DNA of 64,000 nt from Toxoplasma gondii ME49 (taxonomy: Eukaryota > Apicomplexa > Conoidasida > Eucoccidiorida > Sarcocystidae). A program made the position numbers and the translations under genes. The stretch covers positions 1,614,954 to 1,678,953 of the forward strand of contig NC_031470.1 in NCBI RefSeq assembly GCF_000006565.2, in the 5' to 3' direction. The notes beneath the pieces were generated by a model. The model was not told the DNA's origin. It ran no database searches and saw nothing but the letters and a program-made list of their open reading frames with translations. Positions 5,826 through 43,600 of the stretch are shown piece after piece. Each line of letters begins with the position of its first letter. Position 1 is the first letter of the stretch.

Positions 5826-7623
5826 ATGGACGAGCATCGACGGGGAGACGACGATAACGAATTCGCCCTCCGCGAATTCTTCTCAGTCGACTTAAGAGCC
5901 CTGTGCACGTGTAAGTTTGATATATGAAAGAAACACTAAGATGGAATAAAACTCACCATGCTGCAAAGGCCATTCGAGAAGATGGACGTTTAGGAAGTAT
6001 ACTGCATTGGGTATCTACAAAGTGGTAGCATTGTAAATGCATGCCTGGACAGCTTCTTCATGCTTCTGCCGCCTAATTAATCCGTGCACGACGACAGTGG
6101 TTCGGAGGCGGGTGTGGAAGGATGCACACGGGCTTGTACAGGAGTTTCAGGTTCTTCTTGAGCCTTCTATATCCCATTCCCAAGTCGAACGCGAATTCAT
6201 TCAACATTCGAAACGTGGTTGTCGCCCTGTAAACAGACTTTGTGGATATCGGGAAATATGGTCCCGTGGGAGGTGCTCGTCGACAGTGATGCTGTGGAGT
6301 GTCTGCAAACACATTTTCGCGGCTTGAAATCTCTGTGTGCAGGTTCTATCATTTGTCATTTGATTGCTTATCTTTCTTGGGTATTTCTGTTGCTGGTGCC
6401 TGCTATTCAGGGAGGAATGCTTTGCGCTTTGTGGCGACCGTGTTCACGGTTTTCGCCATTCGACGTTTCGGCACCTTGTAAGGACTATTACGTCACTACG
6501 TTGAGCTGGAATATCAGGTGTCGTCGAGGAGATTCTCCTCTATAAGGCACACTGAAGATCGGAAAACATAGCAGCTTCTGCGTTTCGGTCGTTGTACGGT
6601 GAGGGAACGGCTTCCCGCGAGACTTGGCACTACCGTATCTGTTAACCCTGGGCATTATTGAGCGAATGCACCTGCTCAGCGTCCTTTTTTGTGGCAGCTG
6701 CTTAGTGTAGCGCGTGAAGTTCCTGTCCACGGTAGTGAGAGAATTTCACCAAAATTATTGTGTGCCGACCAATCTTCCTCTCGGTTGCAGCATCTACAAC
6801 ATAGCTTGTGAACTTGGTGTTCTGCAGAACAACTACGGTTGACCGTTCGTTCTTGTGTTGTGGCGTGTTCAAAGGGCAGGAATCCTGATTGGCTTTTTCC
6901 TGATTCTGTGGAATCTGAGATACAACGGAACTGGAGACGGGATAAGTGCATATTCGGTCTTTAATAGAGGCGTCCGACATTTGCTTGGGGATCTTCGTCC
7001 TGCTGACATCGACAGACAGCTGCGCAATGCTGGCCCGGATGGTAAGCGTGGTGAACCTAACTCCTGCTACCAGAGTACGCCGCCTGGTCCAAACGGATCT
7101 CTCGCTGGCTGATTTTCGTTCTCAACTGCCGCTACAAATATCCGTTTGTAGGTTCCGCCCCCGCAAGCACTCACGTTCCTCTTTTCATATGTGTGCTGGC
7201 CACTCCCGGAAAACGTCCCTTCTCTGATACACCCTCGGCAACCGTTCCAGATAGAGTATACTCTAACTGCAACATCATTTGGAGGAGTTGTGGTATAGGC
7301 TGCATAGTGCATTGGTGTCCGCGTCACAGGATGGGAACACACTGCCGCATTTGGCGAGGCCACGCGCGCCAGTTAAGATAACAAACCAAGCGATGCATTA
7401 GAAACCATTAATGTCCCAGTATGTGCGCATGACTGCCAGTACTTGCACATCATCCAGTATGCCTGTTACTAGTGGTTCTGTGTCGGTAGGCGACGAATCA
7501 GATGATGACATCCTGGTGTTGAACGGTCCGCGGGTTGCTGGAGTCCACCGGTCTCGTGATGCGAACAAGAGGTGCCCGTGCGGCAGTGGAAAGAAGATCA
7601 AGAGATGCTGTGGAAGAGACTAA
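5826..7623 (+). CDS. SAYSvFN-domain membrane protein with C-terminal SEC-C zinc motif (SAYSD1-like)
   Basis: Five exons join in phase: 5826-5910, 6237-6272, 6411-6477, 6875-7041 and 7490-7623, giving 162 residues. The start is the first ATG of an open acidic exon ending in an ideal donor (GTAAGT). Residues 44-57 and 62-76 are two hydrophobic segments, possibly a membrane hairpin. Residues 87-93 are exactly SAYSVFN, followed by the family pattern RG..HLLGDL...DIDRQLR. This is the SAYSvFN domain of human SAYSD1, an ER protein reported to sense UFMylated ribosomes stalled at the translocon. Residues 147-160 are CPCGSGKKIKRCCG, a textbook SEC-C motif, the zinc-binding tail found in SecA and many other proteins. 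The acidic N-terminus and DESDDD before the tail look like flexible linkers. The acceptor of exon 4 (TTCAAAG) is weak, but phase and domain continuity support it. The gene converges on the GH81 gene. An ER location with a ribosome-linked role is inference from the family. Confidence 0.85.
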
Positions 7624-28884: not shown

Positions 28885-30384
28885 TCAACCGAAACGAACG
28901 CAAAAACCAGTATATTGTCCTAAGGGAGCACCCAGATGTGGCCAGCAATTTTGAAAAAAAAAGAGATCGAGCGCTGGACAAGACGATCCACCTGGAGTGG
29001 TTCTTGGCAGACCCTGAACTGAAGCAACATTTTCCCTGACATGTCGCAGCAAAGTGTTCGTTCGCCAGACATCTTCAGGGGGCCGGCGCTGTGACCCCTT
29101 CAAACACAGTAAGCATGATAGAATGTCTTTTACTGCCTGTGGGACACTGGTACGACAAGCCTGAAACGTGTCCTCCAACCGATAGCCCAGGAACGGTAAC
29201 AAGGCGAGGGATCTTACTTTCCCTTCTGGGTCACCACGTTCAAGCTCTGACATGCTATATGGAAGCCGACCGAACCAGAGAACAAAAAGGGTAATCCCCA
29301 ATGCCCACGAATCTCGACTCTGTGTAGAGATGACTTTCCCTGCCGGATGACGAACCATGGAAATGGCAGTGTCCGGGTCGAGGTAGAGCAGATCCTCTGG
29401 AACAACAAATTCTTCCGGTTTTCCTGTGTACCTGCCTGCGCGGCGAGTATTACGCAGGTATATGTGACCCTTGAAGTCTAACATAAAGCTGTCGAGAGAC
29501 AAATTTCGATGGATACACCCATTTTCATGGAACTTCGTGACGAGATTCAAACACTGCTCCGTCAACACCAGCTTGGCCGATATGCCCAAAGAATGAAAAG
29601 CCAGTTCTTCCAGTGTACAAGCCATACGCGGATAGATAACGAAGAACCTTGTCGAAATCAGAGATGGGCTGACGCGTAGCATCTCAGCAGAGATGCTTGT
29701 CACATAACCCCAGCAGAGAGGGACCAGCAACCCCTGTTTAGCCAAAAGAGAAAGCGGGTCATCGTTGGCAGTCAGTCTTCGGATGTTGAACTCACGCTTT
29801 AGTCTTCTAGCCAGTTCCCTATCTATAAGCATCTTTGCACGGTCAGCGTAGTTGGGATCGTTGAACGCCTTATCTACGTCAATCACGTTGCTGCTTATCA
29901 AGAAGACCTTCGCAGCATACGGATAATCACGTGTGCCGACAGGGCCCAGCTCAAAGTACACGGACTTTTTCCCCAATCCCAGAACTTCCCCTCTCTGTAG
30001 CCACCACCGTGACGGTCGGAGAGAACCGAGAATCCAGGGATGACACTCAAAAATGAACTGACGAGGGAGCTGAGACTGGAGCGACACAACCACTTGCCTG
30101 CTTGTGGACGACATAGTGAAGACACTGGCATCTGCCTCTGTTGCAACGTGTGCAAGTTCGTCCCATCCCTCCTGCTCATCGAACTGAATTGACAGAATAT
30201 CGGACACCGACCCTCCATGTGAACGTTCTGTCGGATCATCCGGATCCACATCTTGTCGTCGTTTCTCGTCTTCTTCTTTTAATCTTCTACGACTGCCACG
30301 TGTCGACCAGAGAGGCAAATTTGACAGACATCGCCCCGATCTAACGGTCCCTCGAAGCAAGCGCCCCAGCCATGACTGGGCCAT
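28885..30384 (-). CDS. ROP-family (rhoptry kinase-like) pseudokinase
   Basis: A single-exon minus-strand frame of 499 codons runs from the ATG at 30384-30382; the frame is open 27 codons further up but without an ATG. A basic, Arg-rich N-terminal region is followed by a protein-kinase fold. It has the glycine-loop segment GEVLGLGKKSVYF, the VAIK-equivalent lysine in YAAKVF, and a long helix-C insertion typical of ROP kinases. The catalytic loop is CIHRNLSLDSFMLD, where HRD has become HRN. There is no DFG at the following strand (HIYLRN instead) and no APE. The helix F motif is DSWALGITLFVLWFGRLPY. Loss of both the catalytic and the metal-binding Asp predicts no phosphotransfer. I see no convincing signal peptide from this ATG, so an upstream exon may be missing, or the protein is not secreted. 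ROP-family assignment rests on the fold plus the coccidian context; I do not name the member. Confidence 0.82.
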   Translation of the reverse strand: MAQSWLGRLLRGTVRSGRCLSNLPLWSTRGSRRRLKEEDEKRRQDVDPDDPTERSHGGSVSDILSIQFDEQEGWDELAHVATEADASVFTMSSTSRQVVVSLQSQLPRQFIFECHPWILGSLRPSRWWLQRGEVLGLGKKSVYFELGPVGTRDYPYAAKVFLISSNVIDVDKAFNDPNYADRAKMLIDRELARRLKREFNIRRLTANDDPLSLLAKQGLLVPLCWGYVTSISAEMLRVSPSLISTRFFVIYPRMACTLEELAFHSLGISAKLVLTEQCLNLVTKFHENGCIHRNLSLDSFMLDFKGHIYLRNTRRAGRYTGKPEEFVVPEDLLYLDPDTAISMVRHPAGKVISTQSRDSWALGITLFVLWFGRLPYSMSELERGDPEGKVRSLALLPFLGYRLEDTFQACRTSVPQAVKDILSCLLCLKGSQRRPPEDVWRTNTLLRHVRENVASVQGLPRTTPGGSSCPALDLFFFQNCWPHLGAPLGQYTGFCVRFG

Positions 30385-33300
30385 TCTTGAGTGTAGCGAT
30401 GCAGCAGACGCAGTCTGCTTTGACCGGAATAAACGACTATCCCTTGAGATATGGCCTAGGCACAAGCTCCTGAGTTGCTACCGGCGCCTGCTACGAAGCC
30501 GCCATATACCCGATGCTGCACTGTGTGTTGCTGAACGGGTCCCTTGTCAACCCTTCATGCTGTTCCTTCATGAATCGGAGAAATCTGTAGTTTTTTTTCA
30601 AGGTGCCGACAAACCAGAGCAGAGCTTACCACTGGCAAGCCCGGCACGGAGAAAAAACTCACTTTTCGGAACGGCGTGACCAGAAGCCAACACTGCAAAT
30701 ACCGGCACCGTACCACGCTGACCTGTTTTTGGCTGAGTCCTCAAACGAAGAAACTGTAGCGTCGGAAAAGATGCTGGTAGGCAGACAACAGCTATGTAAC
30801 GTTATCAAGAGTTGCAAATACCAGGTATTTACACAAAGCATACATTCAACGGGAAAGTCAAGAATGCGGACCTGCGAAGAGGTGAATATCCAGTACTGTT
30901 TTGACAGCGTCGCTGTCTCAACAATTCTTGTCTACGCCTCGTGCATACTAGCATAGATTTGCAGCATATCTCCATGTCATAATGTTTGTTTGAACACTAC
31001 TCTTATTTAATTCGCCCTTGCTTCTTTGCCTCTTGTTGCGGGACACCTCTTTTTCAACCAACTTATAAAACTTGTCATTTTCAACAGTGTCCTTCGTCCG
31101 ATAGACACTTGGAACTGGCTTGGATGGTTGCTGATACAGCGGGAATGCCGGGGTGACATCTCGTTGCTTGTCATTCGTGGCTTGCTGCACCTCAGAAAAA
31201 GTACGCTTGCAAGAGATGCATTACATTTCAGTCGAAAAACCGTTCGACTACGGGGGGTGGACATCGCTCGCATTTCTGTTTCGTCACAGGTGAATCACTT
31301 CGTAGTGCTCTGCAGGTAGCAGATGGTAGTCGCACATGTGAGTTCGTCAGATCTGTGCGATTTTTTAAAGAGTGGACTTCCGACCAGAGCGGCGTCCGGC
31401 GGCCTGAGGCCGGCAATCTCACATACGCTACAGGACGTCAATCCAGAGACCGGACATCCAAAAAGGCTACTACCGAAGCGCTGAGACCTTCTTCAAAGAC
31501 ACGAAAATGTACTTACTTGAACACATATACCACGCCTTTTTTTCGTTCGCCCCCAGGTCTGCTCATTCTGAGAAAATCTCACTCTCAACGAAAACAACAA
31601 CATATTTGCTCTATACGTTGATGAGTGTGCACGAAACTGCACTTGTGAGCAGATGATGCGTTCGCATAATTGCTTCGTGATGACGATGCATGTGTAGCAT
31701 TCCACATTCGCAGCAGCTGGACTTGCCAGATTATATCACGGATAACAGTTTTGCCATCCTTCTGAAACCAGGTAGTGGAAGACTTTCAACCTCTGTAGTT
31801 TTAAGCAGTTGGATGTAAGGTACCCGAAGAGCAGCTACATAAATGGAAAGTGCTGCGGGGTGTACGATCCGTGTATGGCATGCTCACCGCCAGGGATTAC
31901 TCCTCTGTCACCTCGTGTTACCAGCAGAAGAACCGCTGGATCTTGGGATACCGGTCGACAAAAAAATGCAGGCGAAGGACTGCAAAATTGGATATGATTC
32001 ATTTATTACGTGCACACTTTTCATGAGGTCAAAGACACCGTGGGGGATAGCTTTTTGGAATACGAAAGAAAGGTGATACTGCTACCCAGTACTGTGAGTG
32101 CTCTTTTATACTGGCTCATTTACATGTGGGTCTCTAGTGCCAACGCTGAGTGGAGTGGATTTCTAGCCACCGCCTGTTCTTCGCTTCGTATGGTGCAATT
32201 CAGGCGAACTGGCGGGTGACTCTCATCTGACGTTGGTCTTTGACCGGGCTGCCGTGTGTCCTTTCTACGTTTTGGAATATTTGCAACGGTGATAACTTAA
32301 CAACTCTCCTGCATTGGACTGAGGACTGTGAATGATGTTTCCTCTAGTCTAACAGCATAATTCTGCTTCAAGTGAAGAACTGTTGACTATTTCAGAATCG
32401 TGACCACCAAGGACGAGCAGCCGATAGCAGGCAGAAACGCGGACACACAGACGACATGGTTTTACGGTGTTTCCACATCCACACAGTGATGCACAGCAGC
32501 ACAATGAACACAGAAAGTCATAGGAAACTCGGATATTTAACTGATCCCCAGAAGGTCTAGAAATCACCAGGGATGTCCGTGACTATGTCTCCCCCACATT
32601 CCGTTGCCCCCTCCTCGTGCAAATTAGCCTGCAAGAGGACTTCTGGCCTACTCGTCCGCAGCTTTGACATGTCCGACTCAAGATGTTTGACCGCATGTAT
32701 TCCCGTAAGCACACATATTTATTTGGATTCACATTTTTCGTCAATCTGTGGAAGAAACTGGAAGCGACCTCGGTTCATAGGGAACGTGTGCTTCGAGTGT
32801 CAGTATTCAGACGTTGACGGGCCCAGGAACAGACCGTTTTCTCTGCATGCGATTTATTGTACTGCGGGGGGGGGGGGGGTGGCAAGCTAGCTTCAGCCAC
32901 TCGGCTGGTGTCCATTCCACTCGACATCTAAGTGTACAACCAGTTCCTGACTTTTCTTTCGTAGTCCTATTGTTGGTTTCACCATCAATGTATCCGGCGG
33001 ACGTATTTAGGAATTACGATCGTCATGGAAACTGCATGGTTCAGCACGTAGACCCGGGGGGTACAGATGCAAGACAGTTGACATTCAGCAGGGTGCCTCA
33101 TTTGTTTTGACCGAACCCAATTCTTTTCTCGCGGACTAAACATCTGTGTTGTTTATCCCTGGCCAGACGCAGCGTCGATGTCGTGGGGTGAATTGGCGTT
33201 GGAACGCTGGGCCCTGCAACATTGTGCTTCACAAAAGGGGAGAGGCAACGACTCTTGAGTGGTTGCTGCTATCCGAGGCGGGGCTGTTCTCTGATGGACT

Positions 33301-40666: not shown

Positions 40667-43600
40667 AGGGAGCGGAAAAGGGCCGAAATCCCAAGCACCA
40701 GGCGACGCAGAAGCAAATGTCTTTTCTCCAGGGAAAACACCAGCAACGCGTCGGCAATGTCGTCAGTCGTTTAGGCCCTGCTGCAGGTAAACTTCGTGAT
40801 GCGAAGGGTGAAACGAGAATCGGGCACCCAAAGTGAACCTTGACTCTCCTGAGACGCCTTTTGCAGACATACCTTGTGGATGCGAACCCCCAGGAAAGCA
40901 GACACGACGTCAACTCTCGGGTCCGCCTCAGAGGACGTTTCTTGACGTCTCTCGCGTGTGCAGCAAAGGAATGGACCAGAAGTCGATTGGCATGTGTGGG
41001 ATACGGCTGTTTCTGTTGCTCATGTCGAGGATCCCTTTGCGGTTGTCCGTTCCATCCCGTGAGAGCGGCTTCTGAATCTGCGCCCGTTTTTGGATATCTT
41101 GGGTTTGTGCAGTTGGGCAGACGACTTTGATGGACAAGAAACGGAAGCTGTACAGCGACACCAGTCAGCAGCCTCTGTGGAGTTTGAGGAAGATCACCAT
41201 CAACCCGACGGACAAGGACGACCTGCGTCGGTTCCCGTCGAACGCGATCTACACGCACCGTTACTCGGCGATGACTTTCATTTTCAAGAATTTGTGGGAG
41301 CAGTTTCATCGCGTGATCAACTGGTGGTTTCTGGTCATGGCCATCATTCAGGCGATTCCGCAGCTCCACTACAACCCGAACCACGCGTGGTCGACGGCGC
41401 TGCCTTTTGCGATTGTCTTGGTCTTCGGCATGCTCAAAGACGCCTTCACAGACCTAGGCCGGAGGGAGCGAGACCGAGTGTTGAATCAGCGGGTGTGTTG
41501 CATCGTAGACGGCCACACGCCGCAGCTGAGACTCCTTCAGTGGCAAGGCGTTCGAGTGGGAAACATTTTGCGCCTGACAGACGGCGAAGAAGTCCCGGCT
41601 GACATCGTAGTGCTGGCGACGTCCAACACGGACGGCGTGGCGTACGTAGAGACAAGCAAGCTGGATGGGGAGACGAATCTCAAGTTCAAGCAAGGCGTGA
41701 AGGAGACGCGAGGCGAGAGCTCTCCTCTGTCGATTGCAGGGATTCGGGGCCGTGTCGTATGCGAAAAACCATGCGCAGTGATGGACGCCTTCACCGGCAG
41801 TCTGAAGCTCGACGCTCACCCACGAGCGACGCCTCTGGATATTGTGAACTTCATTCAGCGAGGCTCTCACATCCGAAACACCGAGTGGCTTTACGGAGTG
41901 GTCATCTACACAGGTGAAGACACGCGGATCCAGAAAAACGCAGCGCCGCCGGGGTTCAAGCGCCCGCACATTGAGAAAGACATCAACACATACCTGTTCA
42001 TTTCCTTCTTCATCGTCTTCCTCACGATCCTCATCTCGGTCATGAGCAAGTGGAGTGTACAGGAACGAGACAGTGGGGACACAGGGGTGACCGATGCGGG
42101 CGCTTCCTCCGGTTCGGGCTCGTCGAGCGGCGAGACGTCTCAGACCTACGGCAGCAGCGTCGAGTTCATGCTCGGCTCCCGCGACTTGCTCCAAAATCCG
42201 TGGATGTCGATTCTCCGCTTCCTCGCGGTTTACGCGCCCGTGCTGCCTCTCTCTCTCCCCTTGATTCTCGACGTCGTCTACCTGCTGCAGTCCGTGTTGA
42301 TCGAGGGCGACATCCACATTCGCGGGGGGGGACGCACACCTGCCACTGGCCGGGGTAACGGAAGCACAAGTTCCATGACTGTCGCAGACGATGGACTGCC
42401 GGATGGCGAGGCCGGAGGCCTCGACTCCGCCCACTCTTCGCAGAATGCCTCCCTGCAGCAACCTCTCTCGATTGTCTCTAAGGGATTCAGCAAGACTCGC
42501 CGCTTCCTCTCTGAAAAGTTCTCTTCGCCATCGTCCGGACAAATTGGGGGTGGCCAGGACCGCCGCGAGACTCCACGCGAGGATGACGAACGGGAAACGA
42601 ACGGCGAAAACGTCCCGAGCGCCACTCCTCTCTTACCCGGTGGAGAAGCCGCATGCGTGGCAACCGGCGATGAGGAGACCCTCCGAGCCGATGCCGAGGG
42701 CGCCCAAGAGCGCGACAGGGAGGCCGAGGGCAACCGCGAGCAGCTGAAGAGTGTTCCGACCGGGACTCACGCTGCTTGGCGCCCAGGGGCTCTGGACTCG
42801 ACCGCAGAGGCGAACGAGGATGAGGACCCCGACGTGTTGCATGCAGAGAAGGCATCCGGTTTCGGCGCGAGACGAAGCGACGATCGCGACCGAAAGTCTT
42901 CTTGTTCGAGGTACCCGGAAACCGGAGGCGAAAAGACCAGCCACGCAATCTCAGGCCGATTCACCGGATCTGTCATGCCCAGCACCTACACGAAGTTGCA
43001 TGGAGATATCGCCAATGCAGGTTTTGAGAGCGCGTGGCAACCGTACGCAAACGGACACACACACACGAGGACGCTCCTCCTCGCTACCGGAGGCGGCCCA
43101 AATTCGCTGTGCGCCACCGGGAACTTCGAGAGAGAAGACGTTTGGGCCGAAGTTCACACCCCTGCGTTGAACCCCAACTTGGGTCAGGTCGACTTTATCT
43201 TCACAGACAAGACCGGAACGATCACTGAAAACGACATGACTTTCAGCATGTGCAGCGTCGCCGGAAAAATATACGGCATGGCTTCCTGCGGGGGAGCAGG
43301 CTATGAAGGCGCAGAAAGCAGTGAATATGGTATGGCGCCACCATATAGGGAAAAATGTTTTCCCTCCTCGGTACTTCTACTCATGGTTTTCGTGTCTATG
43401 CATGTATATTTGTGATTGTGTCTGCGTACATATAAAATATACATATATATATATATATATATATGTATATGTACGATGAATTATACGGTGTGGCAGCTGT
43501 TGGTTTGCATCACTTCGTCTGTATTTCGATAGGAAATTCGTTCTGAGTTCCACGTTGCCGAGACCTCTTAAATTCTGAGTATTGGCTCCTCCTTCCAATG

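What the first reader, a model, noticed from the sequence alone, without database searches (positions are those of the whole stretch)
5826..7623. SAYSvFN membrane domain fused to a SEC-C zinc tail
The reconstructed 162-residue protein has a double hydrophobic segment, an exact SAYSVFN core and a C-terminal CPCGSGKKIKRCCG. Established knowledge: SAYSD1 proteins sit at the ER and are linked to quality control of ribosomes jammed on the translocon; in SecA the SEC-C type zinc domain contacts ribosomes and SecB. One polypeptide with both suggests a compact ER ribosome-docking or translocon-surveillance factor. I do not know whether this pairing is already described in other protists.
Basis: partly seen in the sequence, partly recalled or inferred. 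Interest (0 to 1): 0.8.

Follow-up and report, generated by a model that had tools for sequence, protein, structure and literature searches.

The report
ER ribosome-sensor protein with zinc tail
A Toxoplasma gene makes a small membrane protein that joins a domain known from the human sensor of jammed ribosomes to a bacterial-style zinc tail known to touch ribosomes; the pairing is real, turns up in many single-celled relatives, and its proposed job is still untested.

Summary
The gene has four exons (5826-5910, 6411-6477, 6875-7041, 7490-7623; GT-AG introns) and encodes 150 residues, not five exons and 162; the model is letter-identical to a predicted Toxoplasma gondii protein. Both domains pass Pfam cut-offs: SAYSvFN 42.4 bits (25), SEC-C 23.9 bits (20.4). 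The fusion is not peculiar to this genome: 55 of 173 listed proteins with a YSxFN core carry the SEC-C cysteines, in coccidia, Cardiosporidium, Chromera, dinoflagellates, Amoebophrya, Perkinsus and Stentor, nine in single transcript-derived frames. Of 22 named animal, diatom and haptophyte hits none has the tail. The same genome encodes UFM1, UFC1, UFL1, DDRGK and CDK5RAP3-like exons, and RPL26 keeps a KGKY stretch. The SecA zinc domain binds ribosomes in print (PMC6620043). Best reading: an ER-anchored SAYSD1-type factor whose cytosolic zinc tail helps hold ribosomes at the translocon. Ribosome or UFM1 binding by this protein was not testable here. My searches of the held papers listed none describing the pairing. 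A real, apparently undiscussed architecture of a known family; moderate interest.

The parts
5826..5910 (+). exon 1: start codon and acidic N-terminus; donor GTAAGT at 5911
   Evidence: joined model identical to P0001
6411..6477 (+). exon 2: first hydrophobic helix; donor GTAAGG at 6478
   Evidence: helix 29-48 in the model
6875..7041 (+). exon 3: second hydrophobic helix, SAYSVFN core and conserved GDLR...ID..LR stretch; donor GTAAGC at 7042
   Evidence: PF10260 at 4.3e-10
6945..6965 (+). SAYSVFN heptapeptide (residues 75-81)
   Evidence: sequence; S75 A76 Y77 S78 F80 N81 invariant in the 47 aligned fusion proteins (P0031, which reads EAYSIFN, was not in that alignment)
7490..7623 (+). exon 4: acidic linker, RSRDANK, SEC-C zinc tail, stop codon
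   Evidence: PF02810 at 1.2e-5
7564..7617 (+). SEC-C motif (residues 132-149), ligands C135 C137 C146 C147
   Evidence: (place converted to window coordinates)

Best explanation
The gene encodes a short SAYSD1-type endoplasmic reticulum membrane protein. Two short hydrophobic helices anchor it, and the SAYSvFN region and the C-terminal SEC-C zinc tail lie in the cytosol. There the basic zinc tail is proposed to contact the ribosome, so that the protein holds or recognises ribosomes stalled on the translocon, probably alongside UFM1 marking of RPL26, and passes the clogged chain on for clearance. Shown here: gene structure, both domains in one frame, conservation of the metal ligands and basic positions, and UFM1-route genes in the same genome. 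Inferred: ER location, topology, metal binding, ribosome binding, any link to UFM1.
For: Exact four-exon match to a database protein. Both Pfam cut-offs passed in one protein. Fusion proteins across alveolates, nine of the fusion proteins being frames from transcript collections. In 47 of 47 aligned fusion proteins C135, C137, C146, N132, K142 and K144 are invariant; position 147 is C in 46 and H in 1. Ligand spacing CXCX8CC fits the CXCX8C(H/C) motif quoted for SecA. PMC6620043 (abstract and passages): a fusion holding only the SecA metal-binding domain co-sediments with ribosomes, and modifying the cysteines of the SecA tail disrupts binding. [quoted passage not shown] The genome encodes UFM1, UFC1 (24), UFL1 (25), DDRGK (29), CDK5RAP3-like exons (30) and RPL26 with KGKY near its C-terminus. 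In the five alignments shown of 41 matching uL24 chains the two lysines are kept in 5 of 5 (KGKY in two, one of them the identical chain; KGKF in two; KSKY in one). That these lysines are the UFM1 sites is recalled.
Against: No localisation or binding data for this protein. PMC10183829 (passages) reports UFMylation lost in Perkinsus and UFM1 lost repeatedly in diatoms, yet P0033 (Perkinsus chesapeaki) carries the fusion and diatom proteins keep SAYSvFN, so the family need not work through UFM1. The same paper says T. gondii C53 lacks the shuffled motifs it links to UFM1 and ATG8. SEC-C domains also bind proteins such as SecB. SecA without its metal-binding domain binds ribosomes more tightly than full-length SecA, and the affinity of the isolated domain is called relatively low. 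CDK5RAP3 matches are weak singly (28.1 and 21.9 bits; 52.7 together; cut-off 22.6). The DDRGK profile also passes its cut-off in 1 of 14 prokaryote controls, and its weaker exon match here spans a stop. Mean pLDDT of the model is only 73.9 and pTM 0.43.
Confidence: 0.5

Rival explanations
1. The zinc tail is a docking site for a partner protein (a chaperone or trafficking factor), as SecA's tail docks SecB, and does not touch the ribosome; the SAYSvFN part does the translocon work.
For: SecA's metal-binding domain binds SecB, and the related E. [quoted passage not shown] 118 of the 173 listed YSxFN proteins lack the tail, so it is an accessory.
Against: The invariant basic positions are of the kind that led PMC6620043 to test ribosome binding, which it found for the isolated domain. 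I did not look for a SecB homologue in this genome.
Confidence: 0.25
2. The protein is a general ER membrane or trafficking factor whose conserved role is independent of UFM1 and of stalled ribosomes; the human stall-sensing role is a later animal addition.
For: SAYSvFN persists in diatom and Perkinsus proteins, groups reported to have lost UFM1. The stretch before the SAYS core is shorter in SEC-C proteins (SAYS at median residue 72 against 129). Mouse Saysd1 knockout males are fertile (PMC11166886 passages).
Against: The window's genome has UFM1-route genes and the RPL26 KGKY stretch. A zinc tail of a type that binds ribosomes fits a ribosome-linked job.
Confidence: 0.18
3. The SEC-C exon belongs to another mRNA and the fusion is a gene-model artefact.
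For: No RNA data for this gene were available here; the closest database protein is itself a prediction.
Against: Intron phase fits and splice sites are GT-AG. Neospora, Besnoitia, Cystoisospora, Cyclospora and Eimeria flavescens proteins carry both parts, and nine transcript-derived proteins hold both in one frame (P0013, P0014, P0016, P0021, P0025, P0027, P0032, P0034, P0053).
Confidence: 0.02

Closest known systems
SAYSD1 / SAYSvFN family (Pfam PF10260)
   Same: hydrophobic double segment followed by the SAYSVFN core; passes the Pfam cut-off
   Different: 0 of 18 named animal hits have the SEC-C tail; the five animal sequences printed have a longer N-terminal part and end soon after the core. 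This protein adds the zinc tail and has a short acidic N-terminus
SecA C-terminal metal-binding domain (SEC-C, Pfam PF02810)
   Same: four ligands in CXCX8CC spacing and conserved basic residues; the profile of the fusion proteins matches SecA chains in solved structures (1.7e-8)
   Different: here it is fused to a eukaryotic SAYSvFN membrane protein with no SecA ATPase
Chloroplastida MAP67 with a SEC-C tail (PMC8321541, one passage)
   Same: a eukaryotic targeting-related protein with a C-terminal SEC-C-like tail
   Different: a mitochondrial SRP54-like protein without a SAYSvFN domain in that description

Membership tests
SAYSvFN family (PF10260) | profile match over the curated cut-off | tested here: met
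   42.4 bits against 25, residues 38-100, profile positions 7-70 of 70
SAYSvFN family (PF10260) | hydrophobic double segment just before the core | tested here: met
   predicted helices 29-48 and 50-64, block means of pLDDT 92-95 over residues 31-60; hydropathy peaks
SAYSD1 as a functional UFM1 and ribosome sensor | binding to UFM1, ribosome and Sec61 | not testable with these tools
   needs pull-down or structure; UFM1-route genes are in the genome
SAYSD1 as in animals | long N-terminal part with a basic L..YR..K-type start | tested here: not met
   the N-terminus of P0001 is short and acidic. A motif written after seeing the animal proteins hits 27 of 118 SEC-C-less and 0 of 55 SEC-C proteins, but the scan skipped proteins with a short N-terminal part, so the zero is partly built in
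SEC-C (PF02810) | profile match over the curated cut-off | tested here: met
   23.9 bits against 20.4 for P0001; 46 of 47 aligned fusion proteins match at E 0.01. The precomputed annotation of P0001 lists PF10260 only
SEC-C (PF02810) | CXCX8C(C/H) ligands | tested here: met
   C135, C137, C146, C147; motif wording from PMC6620043
SEC-C (PF02810) | ribosome binding | not testable with these tools
   shown for SecA in PMC6620043 (passages), not for this protein

The most novel reading that the evidence does not exclude
Many protists, including the tailed alveolates found here, use a SAYSvFN protein whose bacterial-type zinc tail is its own ribosome grip, in place of the longer N-terminal part of the animal protein. 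This would be an old ER stall sensor that can work without UFM1, to which UFM1 reading was added or kept in some lineages.
Probability: 0.25. Interest if true: 0.75.

Novelty: new variant of a known kind. Interest (0 to 1): 0.5.

Why it matters
Human SAYSD1 is a recently described reader of stalled ER ribosomes, and how relatives outside animals grip the ribosome is, as far as I know, open. A conserved fusion to a domain that binds bacterial ribosomes gives a small, directly testable part. Lineages reported to lack UFM1 that keep the family let one ask which came first, ribosome grip or UFM1 reading. In T. gondii it points to a candidate translocon quality-control factor with no function assigned in the sources seen.

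Tried and rejected
A fifth exon between 6478 and 6875 was searched by listing candidate exons (AG before, GT or GC after, at least 12 bases, exon 3 starting at 6875 or 6880): 49 in-frame choices exist, so short exons fit easily by chance; the model without one matches P0001 exactly and was preferred. My first homology query used a five-exon 157-residue variant that I now reject, hence the 94% identity to P0001; the hits were used as found.

Whether the tail has one origin: a tree of 169 domain segments (173 minus 4 too short; the Eimeria tenella model P0006, which lacks the last cysteines, counted as tailed) needs 8 changes of the label, at least 4 forced by starred branches, against a shuffled mean of 47.2. 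Only 73 columns were kept and 83 of 161 inner branches are open, so gain and loss cannot be told apart. The samples are also biased: the query contained SEC-C, that had it masked; in both only about 8000 candidates were scored, and 120 of 184 and 120 of 149 matches were listed. P0001 itself is not among the 120 listed.

Shorter N-terminal part in tailed proteins: SAYS position median 72 against 129, Mann-Whitney p 5.7e-6, but related proteins are counted as independent; descriptive only.

Dropped rows: of 237 listed proteins 64 lack YSxFN and were not counted; 63 of them carry the SEC-C motif and one (P0199) reads SAYAVFN without a tail. One plasmid search found nothing, as expected for a eukaryotic gene.

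Full report
What is there. The window lies in a 65 Mb genome that is Toxoplasma gondii by inference: the spliced protein is letter-identical to P0001, whose cluster is named TGPRC2_254340, T. gondii TgCatPRC2, and an RPL26 piece from the genome is identical to chain 5xxb_X of a solved ribosome (that 5xxb is from T. gondii is recalled). The gene reads 5826-5910, 6411-6477, 6875-7041, 7490-7623 on the plus strand, with donors GTAAGT, GTAAGG and GTAAGC and AG acceptors. The product has 150 residues. The listing found 49 in-frame models with an extra exon, and none is needed. P0001 is itself a prediction, so RNA remains the final test.

Domains. hmmscan of P0001 gives SAYSvFN 42.4 bits (cut-off 25, residues 38-100) and SEC-C 23.9 bits (cut-off 20.4, residues 132-149). 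The precomputed annotation of this protein shows only SAYSvFN, so the tail is missed there. In six frames of the genome PF10260 matches once at E 0.001 or better and PF02810 passes its cut-off once (two further matches at E near 0.9 do not); the two matches lie 541 bases apart on the same strand, in exons separated by a 448-base intron.

Relatives. Searches with the protein and then with an alignment of 10 sequences (P0001 and nine relatives) found tailed proteins in Neospora, Besnoitia, Cystoisospora, Cyclospora, Eimeria flavescens, Cardiosporidium, Chromera, dinoflagellates, Amoebophrya, Perkinsus and Stentor, and in unnamed environmental records. One hit is labelled Rmarinus; that this means Rhodelphis is a guess from memory. 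Nine proteins from transcript collections hold both parts in one frame. A third search with the tail masked listed 120 proteins, 119 with YSxFN, of which 5 have the SEC-C cysteines. Among its named hits 0 of 18 animal, 0 of 3 diatom and 0 of 1 haptophyte proteins have the tail. Over all three searches 173 of 237 listed proteins have YSxFN: 55 with the tail, 118 without. The 118 include P0006 (Eimeria tenella), whose model keeps CPCGSGRKLKK and then departs, probably a wrong last exon. The pairing is therefore frequent in the alveolates found, present in some other records, and absent from the named animal hits. The lists are capped and depend on the query, so these are not frequencies.

Conservation. 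In 47 aligned tailed proteins S75 A76 Y77 S78 F80 N81, G89, N132, C135, C137, GSG, K142, K144 and C146 are invariant, and position 147 is C in 46 and H in 1. The Asn three residues before the first Cys is present in 55 of 55. The spacing is that of the SecA metal-binding domain, and the profile matches SecA chains in solved structures.

Structure. The predicted model has mean pLDDT 73.9 and pTM 0.43. Helices at 29-48 and 50-64 are mostly confident (block means 92-95 over residues 31-60), and the tail is at 81-85 by blocks. The two hydrophobic stretches are short (about 14 and 16 residues by eye) around RRFG.

Mechanism. [quoted passage not shown] the primary paper was not held. PMC6620043 (abstract and passages) shows the isolated SecA metal-binding domain co-sedimenting with ribosomes, though with relatively low affinity. 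The window's genome has UFM1, UFC1, UFL1 and DDRGK exons over their cut-offs, CDK5RAP3-like exons with weaker matches, and RPL26 with KGKY near its end. In the prokaryote controls of the five UFM1-route searches only DDRGK passed its cut-off, in 1 of 14 genomes. PMC7600729 (passages and table) lists UFM1 in Toxoplasma and not in Plasmodium; PMC10183829 (passages) says Plasmodium and Gregarina lost it and suggests that other apicomplexans retain it. Together these favour an ER ribosome-docking role for the fusion; none tests it. Against a strict UFM1 link, UFMylation is reported lost in Perkinsus and UFM1 in diatoms, whose SAYSvFN proteins persist.

Literature. Full-text searches for SAYSvFN (5 papers), SAYSD1 (28 papers listed), SEC-C domain or SAYSvFN (9 papers), four forms of the gene's locus tag (none), SEC-C motif with eukaryot and ribosome (2 papers) and SEC-C motif with protist (none) gave no title or abstract start that describes the pairing. 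I saw listings for these, passages of the papers cited, and no paper whole. A broad six-term search returned 8,388 papers of which 5 were listed, and says little. Only open-licence papers are held. A JGI product name, 'Uncharacterized conserved domain (SAYSvFN)/SEC-C motif' (P0036, P0048), shows that the pairing is visible in annotation.

Verdict. The architecture is real, conserved and apparently undiscussed in the papers searched, within a known family. The proposed role is reasonable and cheap to test.

Noticed in passing
window 28888-30477 (-): Open frame of 530 residues matching the Pfam Kinase-like family PF14531 (1e-11); a kinase-like protein of the parasite.
   Followed up: no
window 41076-43412 (+): Open frame of 779 residues with a phospholipid-translocating ATPase N-terminal domain (PF16209, 2.8e-20), likely a flippase.
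   Followed up: no
P0006 (Eimeria tenella): The database model keeps CPCGSGRKLKK and then reads NGGGRR, so its last exon is probably mis-predicted and hides the SEC-C tail.
   Followed up: partly
G000 C13, C6, C3, C14 (L002-L010, L014-L017): The genome carries UFM1, UFC1, UFL1, DDRGK and CDK5RAP3-like exons.
   Followed up: partly
P0033 (Perkinsus chesapeaki): A tailed SAYSvFN protein from a genus reported to have lost UFMylation; the model also carries PF08507 and may be two genes run together.
   Followed up: no
P0233 (unnamed metagenome record): A SAYSvFN protein listed without a tail reads KSKEANKAFKSGSGRKLKHCCG: a SEC-C-like end with the first two cysteines replaced, perhaps a decayed tail.
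   Followed up: no
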